DNA from: an uncultured Prevotellaceae bacterium
GTDB lineage: Bacteria; Bacteroidota; Bacteroidia; Bacteroidales; Bacteroidaceae
Direction of reading: 5' to 3'
Length of the DNA: 60,155 bases
NCBI GenBank assembly: GCA_902770635.1
Contig: CACXTX010000009.1
Coordinates: forward strand, 1 to 60,155
This document shows positions 758 to 7,535 of the stretch, in pieces. The position numbers were made by a program, and so were the translations under genes. The notes beneath the pieces are model-generated. The model was given only the letters and a program-made list of their open reading frames with translations, searched no databases and was not told the DNA's origin. The first letter of the stretch is position 1, and each line of letters starts with the position of its first letter.

Positions 758-2059
758 ATGCTTATGAAAAAAAGATTTCTTTCAATGTTCGCCCTGCTGC
801 TGATGGCAGCGACGGGCGCAATGGCTGCAGACGGCATCGAATGCTCAGCCAGTGATAAGGGCAAAGTGCTGTGCACCGACGGCAGCATCTATGCCAAGGT
901 GAGCGACGTGCCAACAGGCAAGACGGCTGCTGCCATGATTGTCTACATCGACATGGAGAACAAGAACGGCCTGGCACTTGCGTTGAGCGATGAAGGCTCG
1001 ATGACATGGAGCGATGCCATAACGGCTTGCGAAGGCAAGAGTGCTGTCGCCGGTGGCACATGGGTGCTGCCCAGCAAGGAGCAATGGGAGAAAATGGGAG
1101 CCTTGGAATCCGGCGTTGCCACTGCCACTGCCCTGTGCGACGGCTTCAGCAGCGTCGGTGGAACAAACATGCAGAGCGCAGCTTACTGGTCGAGCACAGC
1201 GAACAGTACCAATGCTAATAAAGCTTACCGTTACTACTTCACCACCGGTTTCTACTGGGAGAATAACGTCAATAAAACAGAGAACAACTATGTCCGTGCC
1301 TGCCTCACGTTCAACATATTGGTCGCTCCTCCCACCTATTCCGTCACCCTGGCCGAGGGCACTGAGGATGCCGGCAAGTGGACCATCAGCCCCGCCAAGG
1401 CTGAAGAGGGCGCAACCGTCACCGTCACGTACAACGGCGAGAAGAAGGTAAAGAGCGTCAAGGCCGTGAAGAAGGCGGCGACCATCCCAGTCACCAGCAT
1501 CACGCTCAACAAGACCGCTACCACCATCTCGGCCGGCAATACCGAGACGCTCAGCGTAACCGCAGTGGCTCCCGACAACGCCACGGACAAAACATACACA
1601 TGGAAGACGAGTAACGCATCGATAGCCACCGTTGACCAAGACGGCAAGGTGACCGCCGTAGCCTTAGGAACTGTCATTATCTATGCCGAGGCTAACGACG
1701 GTAGCGGTGTTAAGGGCAGCTGTACCGTTACGGTAAGCAAAGTCGTCACCATCAACCAGAGCGATTGGGGGGAAAGAGGTCAACGTAGTTTCACAAAAGA
1801 CGGTGTCACCGTCTCAGCAGACATGATTGACCCTGAATTCGGCGAACTCGGGGGCAACATAACAATCTCTACCACCCTCGGTATCTTCTCAAAGATTGTT
1901 GTGACGGCCGAAGAGTGCTATGCTTCCGGCACGGGCTGGAGCGGTAACCATTCATCAATGACCTGGGCGGGCATTCCTGCCTCCACAGTCTCTTTCAGAG
2001 GCGAATTTGAGGGCCGGGGCAGCAACCCAACCACCATCGTCTGCACCATCGTGCCGTAG
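758..2059 (+). CDS. Secreted protein with DUF1566-type lectin-like domain and Ig-like (BIG2) domain
   Basis: A signal peptide opens the protein (hydrophobic core FLSMFALLLMAATGAMA, cut near AMA|AD). Residues about 30-190 form a DUF1566/Fibrobacter-major-type module: GLALALSDEG, then WVLPSKEQW, then AYWSST, ending at YVRACLTF. This module is related to those in the next two genes. Residues about 245-325 are an Ig-like BIG2 repeat (VTSITLNKT...ATVDQDGKVTAVALGT). The last 100 residues are not recognised. The start could equally be the second ATG at 764 (MKKRF). The stretch after YWSST is very rich in Asn and Tyr codons and is the part that differs most between family members. The role is unknown; a surface or secreted binding protein is an inference from the domains. 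Confidence 0.8.
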   Translation: MLMKKRFLSMFALLLMAATGAMAADGIECSASDKGKVLCTDGSIYAKVSDVPTGKTAAAMIVYIDMENKNGLALALSDEGSMTWSDAITACEGKSAVAGGTWVLPSKEQWEKMGALESGVATATALCDGFSSVGGTNMQSAAYWSSTANSTNANKAYRYYFTTGFYWENNVNKTENNYVRACLTFNILVAPPTYSVTLAEGTEDAGKWTISPAKAEEGATVTVTYNGEKKVKSVKAVKKAATIPVTSITLNKTATTISAGNTETLSVTAVAPDNATDKTYTWKTSNASIATVDQDGKVTAVALGTVIIYAEANDGSGVKGSCTVTVSKVVTINQSDWGERGQRSFTKDGVTVSADMIDPEFGELGGNITISTTLGIFSKIVVTAEECYASGTGWSGNHSSMTWAGIPASTVSFRGEFEGRGSNPTTIVCTIVP

Positions 2060-2299: not shown

Positions 2300-3226
2300 A
2301 TGAGAAAATTAAATCGATTAACAATGACGCTCGTGGCACTGCTCAGCATGACAACGGGCGCATGGGCGCAGACGGAGAACGAAGTCACCGTCACCCCCGT
2401 CACAGACAAGACCAACCAATGGACCTTCACCATGCCCGCCAACGACGTCGAGCTGCAGGTGGAGTACTACGCCGAGAGCCACCTCTTCCTCAGCAAGGAG
2501 GCACTGGCCGACAAGGATAACATCGTCGTGAAGAACGGCGAGACCACCGTAGCGTTCGACGACAACGGCAAGTCGACCAACACCGTCACCGAGGGCAACA
2601 CCGTCACCGCCACCTACACCGGCAAGAAAGTACTCGGCATGACGGTGAAGAAGGGGGGTATAGTCCTCCTGAGTGCCGCCACGAAGGACGATATCGGCAA
2701 GGTGGTGTGCGCCGCAGGCCACCTGCACGAGGCGAAGACCGCCGTGCCCGACGGCTGCACCGCAGTGGGCATCCTGGGCCAAGTGACGGAGACGGGCCAC
2801 GGACTGATTCTCGCCCTGAAGGACGCAGCGCAGCAGACTTGGAACACCATCAACGGCTGGACATCCGTGAATACTTACGCCGGCACCACGCTGAAAGTGC
2901 TGCCCGACGCTGACGCTCGCGGCACCAACCTGACCAGCTACACCACGCTGGGCGAGATCCCCGTGTCGAACTGGGGCGTGGCGAACTATGGGCCCTATTC
3001 GGGTATCTTCCTAAACCTCGACTCGAATAAGGATTACTCGGATGTCTATTTATATGATAACAATGTGAATGCCTACATCACCGGTGCTGGCGGCACGGCC
3101 TTGTCTGGCAATTATATTACTCTTGATGATGACGGAGGAAGTTATGCTTATGATTTCGATGACTCGAGTTATGGACCAACCGGTTATAGCCACTTGAAAA
3201 ATGTCAGGCCAATCATCGCATTCTAA
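2300..3226 (+). CDS. Secreted protein with DUF1566-like module, paralogue of the next gene
   Basis: The start was placed at ATG 2300 because it gives a clean signal peptide (MRKLNRLTMTLVALLSMTTG, cut near AWA|Q); an in-frame ATG 57 bp upstream would add a lysine-rich tail before it. The mature protein (308 residues with signal) begins with a short repeat module (FTMPANDVELQVEY) that recurs in the next genes. From about residue 120 it carries a module starting ILLSAATKDDIGKVVCAAG and containing GLILALKDA, NTINGW and DARGTNLTSY. This module is nearly the same as residues 386-530 of the following protein, but the tails after VNAY diverge sharply (here ending VRPIIAF). The fold resembles lectin-like DUF1566 proteins. 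Function unknown. Confidence 0.75.
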   Translation: MRKLNRLTMTLVALLSMTTGAWAQTENEVTVTPVTDKTNQWTFTMPANDVELQVEYYAESHLFLSKEALADKDNIVVKNGETTVAFDDNGKSTNTVTEGNTVTATYTGKKVLGMTVKKGGIVLLSAATKDDIGKVVCAAGHLHEAKTAVPDGCTAVGILGQVTETGHGLILALKDAAQQTWNTINGWTSVNTYAGTTLKVLPDADARGTNLTSYTTLGEIPVSNWGVANYGPYSGIFLNLDSNKDYSDVYLYDNNVNAYITGAGGTALSGNYITLDDDGGSYAYDFDDSSYGPTGYSHLKNVRPIIAF

Positions 3227-3283
3227 CCCCCTCTCGCGCGTATATAATATAGAAGGTATAAACAACATAAAGAAATACAATAT
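3227..3283 (+). repeat. Duplicated intergenic leader, copy 1
   Basis: The segment beginning CTCTCGCGCGTATAT and running through GTATAAACAACATAAAGA is found again almost unchanged at 5003-5047. Both copies follow the stop codon of a paralogous gene and precede the start of the next, so the duplicated unit was gene plus leader, not the gene alone. Confidence 0.8.
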
Positions 3284-5002
3284 ATGAAAAATTCGATTAA
3301 GAGAGAGCAAAGTCAAGCTTGCTTGAACTTTGCCGAACGGAAGAATTTTCGGCTGAAAGCCAAACATAAGATATTAATGACGCTCGCGCTGCTACTCACG
3401 GCAGTCACGGGCGCGTGGGCGCAGACCGAAACGCTGCTGACCACCATTACGGCAACAGCCAAAGAGCAAGCCAGCTACAGCACGGCGAATGTGGCAACCG
3501 TTTCATTCAGTTATACTGCAGGAGGGAGCTCAGCATACCTTGCTAACTGGGGATGGTGGGGATACGGATGGATAGCAACCGTCACCGCTGCCGAAGGATA
3601 TACCATCACCAAATGTATATTCTATGACGACGCCGATCGTACAGCTACAGACAGCGAAGCTCCCTTTGTAGTAGAAACCACAGAAGAGGATAAGACGCCG
3701 AGAATAAATGGCACACCCATTGATGGTGGCAATATGCAGAGTAAGGGTATAAAAAAGATTGAGGTCTATGGCTACAAGTCCGAGCCCGCCATCGACGTGA
3801 AGTGGGACCCTGCAACCAAGACCGGCACCTTCGAGATGCCCGCCTACGACGTGGAGATAGCTCCCATCTACGCTCCTGTGGCTCAGTGGGCCGAAGTCGA
3901 GACTGTGAAGCAGCTGCCCGCCGCCATTGAGGGAATCTACGCCGAGAGCACCGATGCTATCGTCAAGGCCGGTACCGTAGCCTTCGCCGGAACGAGCACC
4001 GAGGTCAAGCAGGGCACAGTGATGTACGCCGTCACCAGCACCAACGAGGCCCCCGCACTCACCGCATTCAGCGCCGACGTGCCCACAGCCAAGGAGATTA
4101 AGACCGCTGGCGACGTCTATGTATGGTACTACATCAAGGGCGCCGACACCCCCACGGGCCAGGAGGCCACTGCCGAGAACACCTTCAACGACTCGGAAAT
4201 CTGCCCTGAACCCATCACGGTCACCGTGCTCAGCAACAAGTTCGACATCCAGTTCAAGGCCGCCAACGCCAACACCATCGAGGCCGGCAAGGCTACCGTG
4301 AAGGTCGGCGACGAGGCTGCCGAGGTGAAGGAAGGCAAACTGACCGGCGTGAAGATGAACTCGAAGGTTACCGTCACCGCCAAGGATGGCTACAAGTTCC
4401 GCAAGGTGGAGGCCAAGAAGCATGAGGAGGTCACCTATATACTGCTCTCTGCCGCAACCGCTGAGGACATCGGCAAGGTGGTATGCGCCGCAGGTCATCT
4501 GCACACGGCGAAGACCGCCGTGCCCAGCGGCTGCACCGCAGTGGGCATCCTGGGTAAGGTGACATCAACCGGTCACGGCCTGATTCTCGCACTGAAGGAC
4601 GCAAAGGACCAGAACTGGAACACCATCAACGGCTGGGAGTCCAAGACCACTTACGCCGGCACCACGCTGAAACTGCTGCCTGATGATGACGCCCGCGGCA
4701 CCAACCTGACAAGCTACACCGCGCTGGGCGAGACCACCGTATCGAACTGGGCAGTGGCGCAGAAGAGCGACTATGTGCCGATATTCGTGAACCTCGGCTC
4801 GACGACTGGTGACAGTGAAGGCAAGACTTACGACGGCAATGTGAATGCCTATTTCACAGGCGTCGGCGGTACGGAAAGATCTAACAGCTATTGGTCTACT
4901 ACGGAGTCCGATGCCAGCCACGCATGGTACTTCGGCGGTGGTTGTTGGGACGCCAGCAATAAGTCGGGTAGCTTTAGTGTCTGGCCAGTGCTCGGCTTCT
5001 GA
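3284..5002 (+). CDS. Large secreted protein with repeat modules and C-terminal DUF1566-like module
   Basis: A 572-residue protein. The hydrophobic signal segment ([17 protein letters not shown]) sits unusually far in, because the first 26 codons contain a palindromic repeat encoding REQSQACLNFAERK. The neighbouring gene at 5048 has the same signal segment ([11 protein letters not shown]) preceded by only four codons. The central part holds a TFEMPAYDVEIAPIY module and an Ig-like stretch, followed by VKVGDEAAEVKEGK and KDGYKFRKVEAKK. The C-terminal 185 residues repeat the module of the previous gene and finish with SYWSTTESDASHAW...FSVWPVLGF, a recognisable DUF1566/Fib_succ_major ending. No catalytic motif is seen. 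It is probably exported; the binding partner is unknown. Confidence 0.75.
   Translation: MKNSIKREQSQACLNFAERKNFRLKAKHKILMTLALLLTAVTGAWAQTETLLTTITATAKEQASYSTANVATVSFSYTAGGSSAYLANWGWWGYGWIATVTAAEGYTITKCIFYDDADRTATDSEAPFVVETTEEDKTPRINGTPIDGGNMQSKGIKKIEVYGYKSEPAIDVKWDPATKTGTFEMPAYDVEIAPIYAPVAQWAEVETVKQLPAAIEGIYAESTDAIVKAGTVAFAGTSTEVKQGTVMYAVTSTNEAPALTAFSADVPTAKEIKTAGDVYVWYYIKGADTPTGQEATAENTFNDSEICPEPITVTVLSNKFDIQFKAANANTIEAGKATVKVGDEAAEVKEGKLTGVKMNSKVTVTAKDGYKFRKVEAKKHEEVTYILLSAATAEDIGKVVCAAGHLHTAKTAVPSGCTAVGILGKVTSTGHGLILALKDAKDQNWNTINGWESKTTYAGTTLKLLPDDDARGTNLTSYTALGETTVSNWAVAQKSDYVPIFVNLGSTTGDSEGKTYDGNVNAYFTGVGGTERSNSYWSTTESDASHAWYFGGGCWDASNKSGSFSVWPVLGF
3296..3361. repeat. Palindromic repeat forming the 5' end of a coding region
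   Basis: CAAAGTCAAGC (3308-3318) pairs with GCTTGAACTTTG (3321-3332) with one bulged base, and CCGAACGGAAG follows. The same layout, with an AAGCTTGCTT centre followed by CGAAC, occurs between genes at 48999-49040. Compared with the paralogous start at 5048, this adds 22 codons in frame. Confidence 0.7.
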
Positions 5003-5047
5003 CCCTCTCTCGCGCGTATATTATAAAAGTATAAACAACATAAAGAT
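5003..5047 (+). repeat. Duplicated intergenic leader, copy 2
   Basis: Shares CTCTCGCGCGTATAT and GTATAAACAACATAAAGA with 3227-3283. It leads directly into the ubiquitin-domain gene, so that gene appears to have inherited the leader and signal-peptide coding region of its neighbour. Confidence 0.8.
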
Positions 5048-6367
5048 ATGAACAATATGAAACATAAGATATTAATGACGCTCGCACTGCTTATGCTGTC
5101 CGTAAGCATGAGTGCCATGCAGATATTCGTGAAGACGCTGACGGGTAAGACCATCACGCTCGACGTTGAATCTACCTACACCATCTTGAATGTGAAAGGA
5201 ATGATCAAGGACAAAGAGTCGATACCAACCGACAAGCAGAGACTCATCTTCGCCGGCAAGGAGCTTGAAGACTCGAAGACACTGGACGACTACAACATCC
5301 AGAAGGAATCGACCCTCCATCTAATTGTAAAAACCGACGCCGGTCCCACAGTGACCATCAACGACACCAAGACCGAGGCTTCGTTCGAAATGCCAACCAG
5401 CGACGTGACCGTTGACTACGAGCTGGTGCGCGACATGAGCGTGAAGATGCAGGCACAAGTGGGCGACGACCCCGACAAGCAGCCCCGCTACCGCGTGAAG
5501 AAGAACGAGCAGACCGGTAAGTACGAACCCGCAGAAATGGATTACGAACAGGTGATGGCACTCTTCAGCGTCAAAGACCTGATAGAGAATACCACGCTCG
5601 ATAAGCAGAACTACCTCGTCAGCATCTACGCCATCGACGCTGAAGGAAAGCCCACCGGCAACGCCATGGACTTCACCAACTTCACCTTCACCCCCGGACG
5701 CTACTGCGTGACAGCCAGAGCCAACACACTGCTCGAAGAGCCAGTGCCCTACGAGGGCACCACGGCACCCTCCAACATCTTCGAGCTCTACCAGGGCTAC
5801 CAGGTGGTCATCCCAGCCGGCGAGTACGCCACCTACTATAAGGACGAGGCAGTGAGACTGGATGAGAAGGACAAGAACGACATCGAACTCTGCACCATCA
5901 CTGCTGTAGAGGACGGAAAGGCTGTGCTCAGCGACAACTTCGACGCCATGACGGCGAACACACCGTTCCTGCTGAAGAACACAACCACCGAGGAGAAGAC
6001 CATCCTGCTCATCCCATGCAACGAGCCTAACCTGGCCGTAACGGTTGCCAAGGAGTTCAAGGGCACCGAAGGCCCATGCGAAATCTCTGAAGCCCTGATG
6101 GCTACCGGCGACTTCTACGTATGCAACGGCAAGGAGTTCATCAAGGTTCGCGGCGCTGGCACACTGGCTGCCAACAAGGCATACCTCTTTGTCTTCCGTC
6201 GTAGCATCGGCGGCGAAGGCGAAGGAACCACCAGCATCGATAACGTTAACCCTAACCTTAACGATAACGAGGCTACATGGTACGACCTGAACGGACGACG
6301 CCTGCAGGGCAAGCCTAGCCAGAAGGGACTGTATATTAAGAATGGACGTAAAGTCGTGGTACACTAA
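5048..6367 (+). CDS. Secreted protein with an N-terminal eukaryote-like ubiquitin domain
   Basis: Residues 1-23 are a signal peptide ending SMSA. The next residue begins [15 protein letters not shown], so the predicted mature N-terminus is ubiquitin Met1. By hand alignment residues 24-99 (5117-5344) match 55 of 76 human ubiquitin positions, 54 of them in the first 70, with no gaps. Leu8, Ile44, His68 and lysines 6, 11, 27, 33, 48 and 63 are kept; Lys29 is Met. The tail is VKTDAG in place of LRLRGG, so the Gly-Gly needed for E1 activation is absent. [15 protein letters not shown] repeat module follows, then about 250 residues of a Prevotella-type secreted region ([22 protein letters not shown]), and a C-terminal segment YDLNGRRL...[13 protein letters not shown] resembling a type IX sorting tail. 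Bacteroides fragilis secretes a ubiquitin homologue (BfUbb) that antagonises related strains; a similar or host-directed role here is inference. Confidence 0.92.
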
Positions 6368-6388: not shown

Positions 6389-7535
6389 ATGAATATGAAA
6401 AAGATATTTTCGATATTAGCACTGGCTCTCGCGGCAATGACCGCGAGCGCCAAAGTGGCAGAAAGCTACAAGCTGACTGTAGGCAAGAGTGAGAAAGGAA
6501 CCGTCATGTTCCTGGTGAACGGCTCGGAAGTGGATGCCGCTGCCGAGGGCACTACCGTGACCATGGAGATTACGCCCGAGGGCGGATACGTGGTTAAGGA
6601 AGTGACCAACTCGCTATATACTGACTGGAACAGCGCACGCGCCGCATCGACCAAACGTAACTTACGACATCGAGATTCCAACGCCCGCCGAGGACAAGAA
6701 GGACGAGGAGAAAGAGGTGACCGACGTGAAGATGGACATGCAGCCGGCAGAGGGCGAGGCACCCACGACCGACCCCACGACGGGCATCACTACCATCCCC
6801 GTTGACATCACCGGCGTAGAGGTGCCCCAGACGGCTCCACAGGAAATCGTCATCGAGGTGGCTGCTTCCACACAGGTGGGCAACAACGTATTCGTAGTAC
6901 GCGAAATCAAGGCCGACGCCTTCAAGACTAACGACGAAAACGTGAAGGTGACAAAGGTCATACTGCCCGACACCGAAGCGCCACTGACCGTGGAGGCCGG
7001 CGCCATGAAGCCCAACGGCGCACCCATTGACGTGCAGACACCGCTGGCACTGCTGGACGACTACGCACTGATGAACACCATGAAGGAGAACTACGAGGCT
7101 AACAAGGTGACTGCCAAGGCTACCGCACCAGATCGCTTCTTTACCTTCTCAAGCGGCGTCGATGTCTTAGTGCCCGAGGGAGTAACCGTATATCGCGCAT
7201 TCAACGAAAACGGCAACATCCGCATCCTACCCATCGAAGAGGCTAACCAGTCGAAGATTATCAAGGCCAACAACGGCGTACTGCTCTCATGCAACGAGAT
7301 GAAGGGCGGAAAGGCCTACGAATTCGTGGCTAACCCCAGCGGTCCCAAGAGCGGCACAAAGCCTGCCACCACCGACGCCAAGAGCTACGAGGGCAACAGC
7401 ATGGTGCCCGTCATCGAGGCTAAGAACTATGCTACCGGACAGTACCTGATTATGAAGGGCAACCAGTTCCACACCATCTCTGCCAACGGCAAGGTGCCCG
7501 CCTGCAAGGCTGTGTTCGATATCAATAAACAATAA
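6389..7535 (+). pseudogene. Secreted protein gene interrupted by a frameshift
   Basis: The first part reads MNMKKIFSILALALAAMTAS, a signal peptide, and continues in frame to about 6650 (NSLYTDWNSARAAS). Coding potential then moves to the next frame, where VTYDIEIPTPAEDKK can be read back to about 6651, and runs without a stop to 7535 (ending CKAVFDINKQ). The total length is one base more than a multiple of three, consistent with a single inserted base near 6645-6660. An intact product would have about 381 residues. The C-terminal half (GQYLIMKGNQFHTI) resembles the ends of other secreted proteins here, and the middle (VFVVREIKADAF) looks like a leucine-rich-repeat cap. A sequencing error is possible. 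Function unknown. Confidence 0.65.

What the first reader, a model, noticed from the sequence alone, without database searches (positions are those of the whole stretch)
5048..5344. Exported bacterial ubiquitin at the exact mature N-terminus of a larger secreted protein
Residues 24-99 match human ubiquitin at 55 of 76 positions by hand alignment without gaps, far above what a beta-grasp fold alone would give. The Ile44 patch and lysines 6, 11, 27, 33, 48 and 63 are kept, but the tail lacks Gly-Gly, so it cannot be activated by E1. The predicted signal cleavage (SMSA|MQIF) leaves ubiquitin Met1 as the first residue. B. fragilis BfUbb is the known exported bacterial ubiquitin; here the domain is fused to about 340 further residues and a sorting-type tail, which I do not know to be described. 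It could bind host ubiquitin-handling proteins or act as an antagonist toxin.
Basis: partly seen in the sequence, partly recalled or inferred. Interest (0 to 1): 0.92.

Follow-up and report, generated by a model that had tools for sequence, protein, structure and literature searches.

The report
Ubiquitin head on secreted Prevotella protein
A Prevotella-like bacterium encodes a protein, secreted to judge by its signal peptide, whose free front end is a close copy of the eukaryotic protein ubiquitin, apparently used as an exchangeable head rather than as a protein tag.

Summary
Window 5048-6367 (+) encodes 439 residues: a signal peptide, then ubiquitin from its own Met1 (55 of 76 identical to human; Pfam E 7e-25), then about 340 residues ending in a tail whose kind has 19 matches in this genome. 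The Gly-Gly end is gone. It is not contamination: 14 of 398 genomes sampled from the genus carry a signal peptide-ubiquitin fusion, including near-closed ones. Toxin or antagonist is not my first choice. Ubiquitin is an N-terminal cassette in a tandem array of secreted genes: DNA relatedness to a Ub-less positional relative covers the signal peptide, stops, and resumes just behind ubiquitin; that relative carries another head, and the ubiquitin cassette sits on other bodies in other genomes. It is under purifying selection. In the window's eight-member clade the beta-sheet face (Ile44 patch included) changes as little as the core, which suggests a binding head; looser relatives show no clear bias, and the split was made with hindsight. 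Exported ubiquitins also occur on a Ruminococcus albus plasmid, in an autotransporter and in an IPTL-CTERM protein.

The parts
4991..5094 (+). 5' block: spacer, start and signal-peptide DNA, repeated before other genes of related arrays
   Evidence: blastn 77-97% (the highest over 32-74 bases) to several copies each in L016, L017, L020, L021, L023; partial copies in the window at 3221-3292 and 3362-3393
5048..6367 (+). gene 4 of the array: signal peptide, ubiquitin, body, tail (439 aa)
5048..5116 (+). signal peptide (residues 1-23), judged by eye
5117..5344 (+). ubiquitin domain, residues 24-99, no Gly-Gly
   Evidence: PF00240 E 7.2e-25; 55/76 to human
5345..6364 (+). body (340 aa), found without ubiquitin in L016, L017/L018, L021 and others
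   Evidence: phmmer, blastn; no Pfam family for the window row
6263..6364 (+). C-terminal tail ([28 protein letters not shown] type)
   Evidence: 19 matches in the own genome, itself included; the family profile's end matches the end of 4kca arabinanase, E 5.2e-6
758..2059 (+). array gene 1: signal peptide (by eye), Lcl_C-like stretch (below cut-off), Big_2
2300..3226 (+). array gene 2: signal peptide (by eye) then an FxMPxxDV stretch
3284..5002 (+). array gene 3: secreted by its signal peptide (by eye); shares stretches with bodies of other Ub fusions (L024, L027, L028, L056)
6389..7535 (+). array gene 5, in two overlapping open frames here (6389-6805 and 6606-7535); both parts match one frame in L021

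Best explanation
Ubiquitin serves here as an exchangeable N-terminal head of a secreted, probably surface-displayed, modular protein. Shown by sequence: the domain, its place right behind the signal peptide, loss of the conjugation tail, the change of head between positional relatives with the break at module borders, and purifying selection. Inferred: the protein leaves the cell (signal peptide; recurrent tail; T9SS component GldL in the genome) and is held at, or released from, the surface; the repeated signal-peptide DNA lets neighbouring genes exchange heads; and the ubiquitin head binds a partner through its beta-sheet face, most simply a protein or surface in the gut or rumen (protist, host or rival bacterium). 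It does not work as a covalent tag.
For: Census: 14 of 398 genus genomes, 15 matches. Of 20 rows laid out from the order, 19 begin ubiquitin at Met1 at the end of the signal peptide by eye (L058 with one residue between), 15 of them as Ala|Met. Head change: window vs L016 related at 5004-5094, then from 5347 to 6346 (77.9% over 1049); L016 carries a SusF/SusE-like head there (E 1.2e-5, 26.1 bits, under the cut-off of 27.5). The ubiquitin stretch (hits within 4997-5350, 77.6-85.4%) is related to L019, L020, L024, L026, L028, which have other bodies behind it. Of the loci examined only L029 shares head and body with the window. Selection: 7 clade members, dN/dS 0.26 over 72 codons; dN is 0.068 on the beta-face, 0.075 in core and rest, 0.199 at other exposed positions (dN/dS 0.18, 0.10, 0.62); identity to human 0.91 on the face vs 0.42 elsewhere exposed over 8 members (0 of 20,000 shuffles). 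Clade support 99/99, bootstrap not quite settled. Display: other exported ubiquitins carry an autotransporter barrel (L071, PF03797 102.9 bits), IPTL-CTERM (L051, 33.6 vs 20.5 bits) and choice-of-anchor Q (L073, 38.3 vs 25).
Against: Over 19 rows the Ile44 patch is kept no better than other positions (0.58 vs 0.60; p 0.71), though the Phe4 patch is (0.87, not tested). In 10 rows outside the window's clade the face bias is small (0.63 vs 0.54, p 0.13) and I44 itself is kept in 3 of 10. The face and patch lists are recalled and the face split was drawn after I had seen which positions vary; positions and related sequences are not independent. The window protein matched no tail model at E <= 0.1 and is not among the 5 TIGR04183 matches of its genome. 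No structure, expression or binding data; structure prediction was off.
Confidence: 0.55

Rival explanations
1. Structural filler: ubiquitin is a small, very stable fold that caps the N-terminus of a secreted protein, helps it fold or resist proteases, and binds nothing in particular.
For: Other heads on positional relatives; no preference for the Ile44 patch over 19 rows; the InlB B repeat, a repeat class found elsewhere in such proteins (Flg_new in L026 and L030), is described as resembling a beta-grasp fold (PMC8900821, passages).
Against: In the window's clade the exposed beta-face changes less than the rest of the surface. The window protein itself matches no InlB-repeat family at E <= 0.1.
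Confidence: 0.25
2. Antibacterial toxin of the BfUbb kind, acting on related strains, with the body as carrier or anchor.
For: BfUbb is an exported bacterial ubiquitin without the terminal glycine that inhibits other B. fragilis strains (PMC5705921: abstract, passages, Discussion); same order; the signal peptide ends at Met1 in both.
Against: BfUbb (taken to be L064/L070) is stand-alone and lies outside the window's clade; it has changed L8, K11 and H68, which the window keeps. Immunity genes were not searched for.
Confidence: 0.13
3. Decoy or inhibitor of the ubiquitin system of rumen eukaryotes or host, acting inside their cells.
For: Ile44 patch nearly intact and six of seven lysines kept; BfUbb inhibited ubiquitination in vitro and bound human E1 (PMC3352274, passages incl. 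abstract).
Against: No Gly-Gly and no C-terminal Cys, the residue proposed for the BfUbb-E1 bond; a 340-residue extension. Injection systems were not looked for.
Confidence: 0.06
4. Contamination or misassembly with eukaryotic DNA.
For: Ub DNA has lower GC (0.47) than the rest of the gene (0.56).
Against: Its GC3 (0.71) lies within that of the array genes (0.68-0.76); in-frame fusion to a bacterial body; 14 of 398 genomes, including G117 (1 contig) and G265 (2 contigs).
Confidence: 0.01

Closest known systems
BfUbb (ubb) of Bacteroides fragilis
   Same: Ubiquitin with a signal peptide ending at Met1, exported, no terminal glycine; same order.
   Different: Stand-alone 76 residues ending in Cys, antibacterial; 48/76 to human vs 55/76 here; not in the window's clade; no fusion and no head exchange known to me.
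Eukaryotic ubiquitin
   Same: 55 of 76 residues, Met1 start, Ile44 patch but for V70I, six of seven lysines.
   Different: No Gly-Gly, exported, continued by 340 residues; no E2 match in the genome (where no control rang either).
Ubiquitin family protein of Ruminococcus albus plasmid pRUMAL01 (WP_013483628.1)
   Same: Signal peptide by eye, ubiquitin at Met1, C-terminal extension, no Gly-Gly.
   Different: Bacillota, different body, 66/76 to human; I know of no study of it.
Modular surface proteins of Bacteroidales (BspA-type LRR, List-Bact repeat, Big_2)
   Same: These domain classes occur in the bodies or array neighbours: LRR_5 in L033 and L023, Flg_new in L026 and L030, Big_2 in window gene 1.
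   Different: A ubiquitin head is, to my knowledge, not part of their description.
Polymorphic toxin systems
   Same: Cassette exchange on a conserved scaffold.
   Different: There the C-terminal toxin varies (PMC3482391, abstract start and passages); here the N-terminal head does.

Membership tests
Ubiquitin family (PF00240) | Score over the curated cut-off | tested here: met
   87 bits vs 25.4
Conjugated ubiquitin | C-terminal Gly-Gly | tested here: not met
   residues 75-76 are Ala-Gly and the chain runs on
Conjugated ubiquitin | E2 enzyme in the organism | tested here: inconclusive
   no PF00179 match in the genome, but no control genome rang; E1 not searched
BfUbb | Groups with BfUbb | tested here: not met
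   window in an 8-row clade (99/99) without L070; deep order unresolved
BfUbb | Stand-alone mature 76-residue protein ending in Cys | tested here: not met
BfUbb | Inhibits related strains | not testable with these tools
   needs an agar spot test
T9SS cargo | TIGR04183 (Por_Secre_tail) match | tested here: not met
   no match at E <= 0.1; 5 others in the genome, 4 over the cut-off
T9SS cargo | T9SS in the genome | tested here: met
   GldL, 72.1 bits, 102.6 with its neighbour piece, vs 68.3; other components not searched
Signal-peptide secreted protein | Signal peptide | tested here: inconclusive
   clear by eye in window and relatives; no predictor run
Polymorphic toxin | Variable C-terminal toxin domain with immunity gene | tested here: inconclusive
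   no toxin family among the Pfam matches of the window gene and 19 related proteins; immunity not searched

The most novel reading that the evidence does not exclude
Bacteria of at least two phyla, perhaps independently, have turned acquired ubiquitin into an extracellular display head, put at the free N-terminus of anchored or secreted proteins and traded as a cassette; in rumen-type Prevotella it uses the ubiquitin beta-face to hold ubiquitin-binding proteins of eukaryotic neighbours.
Probability: 0.25. Interest if true: 0.88.

Novelty: new variant of a known kind. Interest (0 to 1): 0.7.

Why it matters
Ubiquitin is taught as a eukaryotic protein tag, with one well-studied exported bacterial exception. 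Here it is a repeatedly used, exchangeable and apparently extracellular domain in a common genus and, in single cases, in other bacterial groups. That would turn BfUbb from an oddity into one member of a wider class and give a natural set of ubiquitins freed from conjugation, in which one can ask which surfaces selection keeps. It also gives a clear example of head exchange in arrays of secreted genes.

Tried and rejected
Toxin or E1 antagonist as the main reading: see rivals. Contamination: rejected on independent and near-closed genomes. Phage carriage: no tblastn match at 1e-5 in 50,697 phage records; 8 IMG/VR loci encode ubiquitin, some exported by eye (L047, L051-L054), some with Gly-Gly and no signal peptide (L048, L050). 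Plasmids: 3 records match, R. albus and two of Pseudoalteromonas at 40-42%. Origin of the domain: the 72-column tree leaves the deep order open, so no donor is named.

The Ile44-patch test over 19 rows came out negative; I then looked at the window's clade alone, so that result is post hoc. Patch, core and face lists are recalled, from no call. Structure of the body: no prediction obtained; the PDB profile search gave one match, in the tail region. Pfam on the body alone: nothing for the window row, and for each of four families one weak member of ten.

Rows left out: L035; L033; L068; L055 (saturated dS); L047-L050 from the bacterial counts; repeats L052, L054, L062-L067, L069; weak hits L040, L041, L043, L044, L045 (and L059, L061 fetched around two of them, not used further). 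L024 runs off its contig. Papers: PMC5705921 (outline with abstract, passages, Discussion), PMC3352274, PMC3482391, PMC1779556 and PMC8900821 (passages); all else search listings.

Full report
Observation. Window 5048-6367 (+) is an open frame of 439 residues. Residues 24-99 are ubiquitin: 55 of 76 identical to human without gaps, 54 of the first 72, PF00240 at E 7.2e-25. Six of seven lysines and L8, R42, I44, G47, K48, H68 are kept; V70 is Ile and LRLRGG is VKTDAG. Met1 of ubiquitin follows the signal peptide directly (by eye).

Not an accident of one assembly. PF00240 is found in 14 of 398 genomes drawn from the genus (15 matches), among them G117 (1 contig) and G265 (2 contigs); in 7 of 399 of the family sample, 5 of 393 of the order sample, 4 of 149 of the genus around G727 and 4 of 247 of the phylum sample. 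The samples overlap; all but that include G000; 6 of the 7 and 3 of the 5 are over the Pfam cut-off. Each of these calls rang in 0 of 14 control genomes. Named relatives of the body are Prevotella or Prevotellaceae assemblies, two of them from water deer omasum by title; RUG names mean rumen by recall.

Anatomy. Of 20 rows from the order that I laid out, 19 start ubiquitin at Met1 at the end of the signal peptide (L058 with one residue between), 15 with Ala before Met1; L035 does not. In 12 of 20 an F-x-M-P-x-x-D pattern starts within 26 residues of position 71. Of 9 further exported rows, 7 have Ala|Met, L073 has Ser|Met and L068 carries ubiquitin far from its signal peptide. None of the 19 order rows has Gly75. 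Bodies differ widely: List-Bact repeats (L026, L030), beta helix (L030), BspA-type LRR (L033), and below the cut-off MBG (L032) and Lcl_C (L023, L056). The window's tail has 19 matches in its genome, itself included, in open frames of 33 to 2842 residues; whether at their ends was not checked. The genome has GldL and 5 TIGR04183 matches, the window protein not among them. Export across the outer membrane is likely but not shown.

A cassette in an array. Genes 758, 2300, 3284, 5048 and 6389 run in one direction, each with a signal peptide by eye, and share stretches with arrays in other genomes (part of the output was cut). The spacer plus signal-peptide DNA (window about 4991-5094) recurs before array genes at 77-97% identity, several copies a locus, and in part before gene 3 of the window. 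Against L016, relatedness covers 5004-5094, stops, and resumes at 5347, two bases past the last ubiquitin codon, to 6346 at 77.9%. L016 has a SusF/SusE-like head there (under the cut-off) and a gene-3 relative directly upstream. L017/L018 likewise have a gene-3 relative directly upstream of the body, with another head; in L021 one more gene lies between. In L019/L056, L020/L027, L026, L028 and L023 the body is present without ubiquitin while ubiquitin sits on another gene of the same stretch. Of the loci examined L029 alone shares head and body with the window. Ubiquitin is thus a movable head; repeated signal-peptide DNA is a plausible anchor for recombination (inferred).

Selection. Among 7 members of the window's clade dN/dS over the 72 codons is 0.26 (ratio of means). 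Split by recalled structure, dN and dS are 0.075 and 0.731 for core and rest, 0.068 and 0.380 for the beta-sheet face, 0.199 and 0.320 for other exposed positions (ratios 0.10, 0.18, 0.62); no test was made on this split. Pairwise values over 8 members run from 0.06 to 0.60. Identity to human on the face is 0.91 against 0.42 elsewhere exposed over 8 members (0 of 20,000 shuffles). That would fit a binding face. Against it: over 19 rows the Ile44 patch is not favoured (0.58 vs 0.60, p 0.71), while core stands at 0.93 and the Phe4 patch at 0.87; 10 other order rows show 0.63 vs 0.54 (p 0.13), with I44 kept in 3 of 10, and 7 further exported ubiquitins 0.82 vs 0.76 (p 0.11). The split was made with hindsight and related rows are not independent.

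Relation to known exported ubiquitin. BfUbb is taken to be L064/L070, from its length, signal peptide, C-terminal Cys and 48/76 identity to human, which equals the 63% of the PMC3352274 abstract; a second genome, G1279, has the same protein (L063). It is stand-alone and falls outside the window's 8-row clade (99/99). The deep order of the tree is unresolved, so one or several acquisitions cannot be told apart. Other exported forms: R. albus plasmid pRUMAL01; L071 with Big_3_5 and an autotransporter barrel; L051, with IPTL-CTERM, and L052 and L054, whose proteins look the same; L073 with choice-of-anchor Q; L047 with a signal peptide and an intact LRLRGG end on an IMG/VR contig, the only exported row seen with the conjugation tail.

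Literature. Ten searches of one open library showed BfUbb papers and, by titles and abstract starts, none on ubiquitin fusions in Prevotella or on R. albus ubiquitin; most subscription journals are not held, and one search listed 20 of 636 papers.

Verdict. A real, recurrent and apparently undescribed variant of exported bacterial ubiquitin: an exchangeable N-terminal head on secreted proteins. Binding head most likely, structural filler next, toxin or ubiquitin-system antagonist less likely.

Noticed in passing
L047:4811-5137 (+): Signal peptide (by eye) followed by a ubiquitin with an intact LRLRGG end and nothing behind it, on an IMG/VR contig; the other ORFs look bacterial or phage-like to me but were not searched.
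   Followed up: partly
L046:7923-8663 (+), R. albus plasmid pRUMAL01: Exported ubiquitin (66/76 to human) in a run of hypothetical genes near a PI-PLC domain gene and a dockerin gene.
   Followed up: partly
L071:4729-6897 (-): Signal peptide, ubiquitin, Ig-like domains and an autotransporter barrel in one protein, in another family of the phylum.
   Followed up: partly
L051, L052, L054: Signal peptide, ubiquitin and an IPTL-CTERM sorting tail (model run on L051 only); three contigs with nearly the same protein.
   Followed up: partly
plasmids NZ_CP077771.1 and CP076682.1: Ubiquitin-like stretches (40-42% identity) inside large repeat proteins of Pseudoalteromonas shioyasakiensis.
   Followed up: no
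window 6389-7535 (+): Array gene 5 lies in two overlapping frames; relative L021 has both parts in one frame. Disrupted gene or assembly error.
   Followed up: partly
L055:4015-5024 (-): The ubiquitin fusion gene of G547 is short and its tail seems to lie in another frame.
   Followed up: no
L022:7324-9697 (-): Neighbouring genes of one kind repeat closely and hold masked stretches.
   Followed up: no
L062/L068 (G1239): A ubiquitin domain at the C-terminal end of a 177-residue frame (residue 102 on), unlike the other rows laid out.
   Followed up: no
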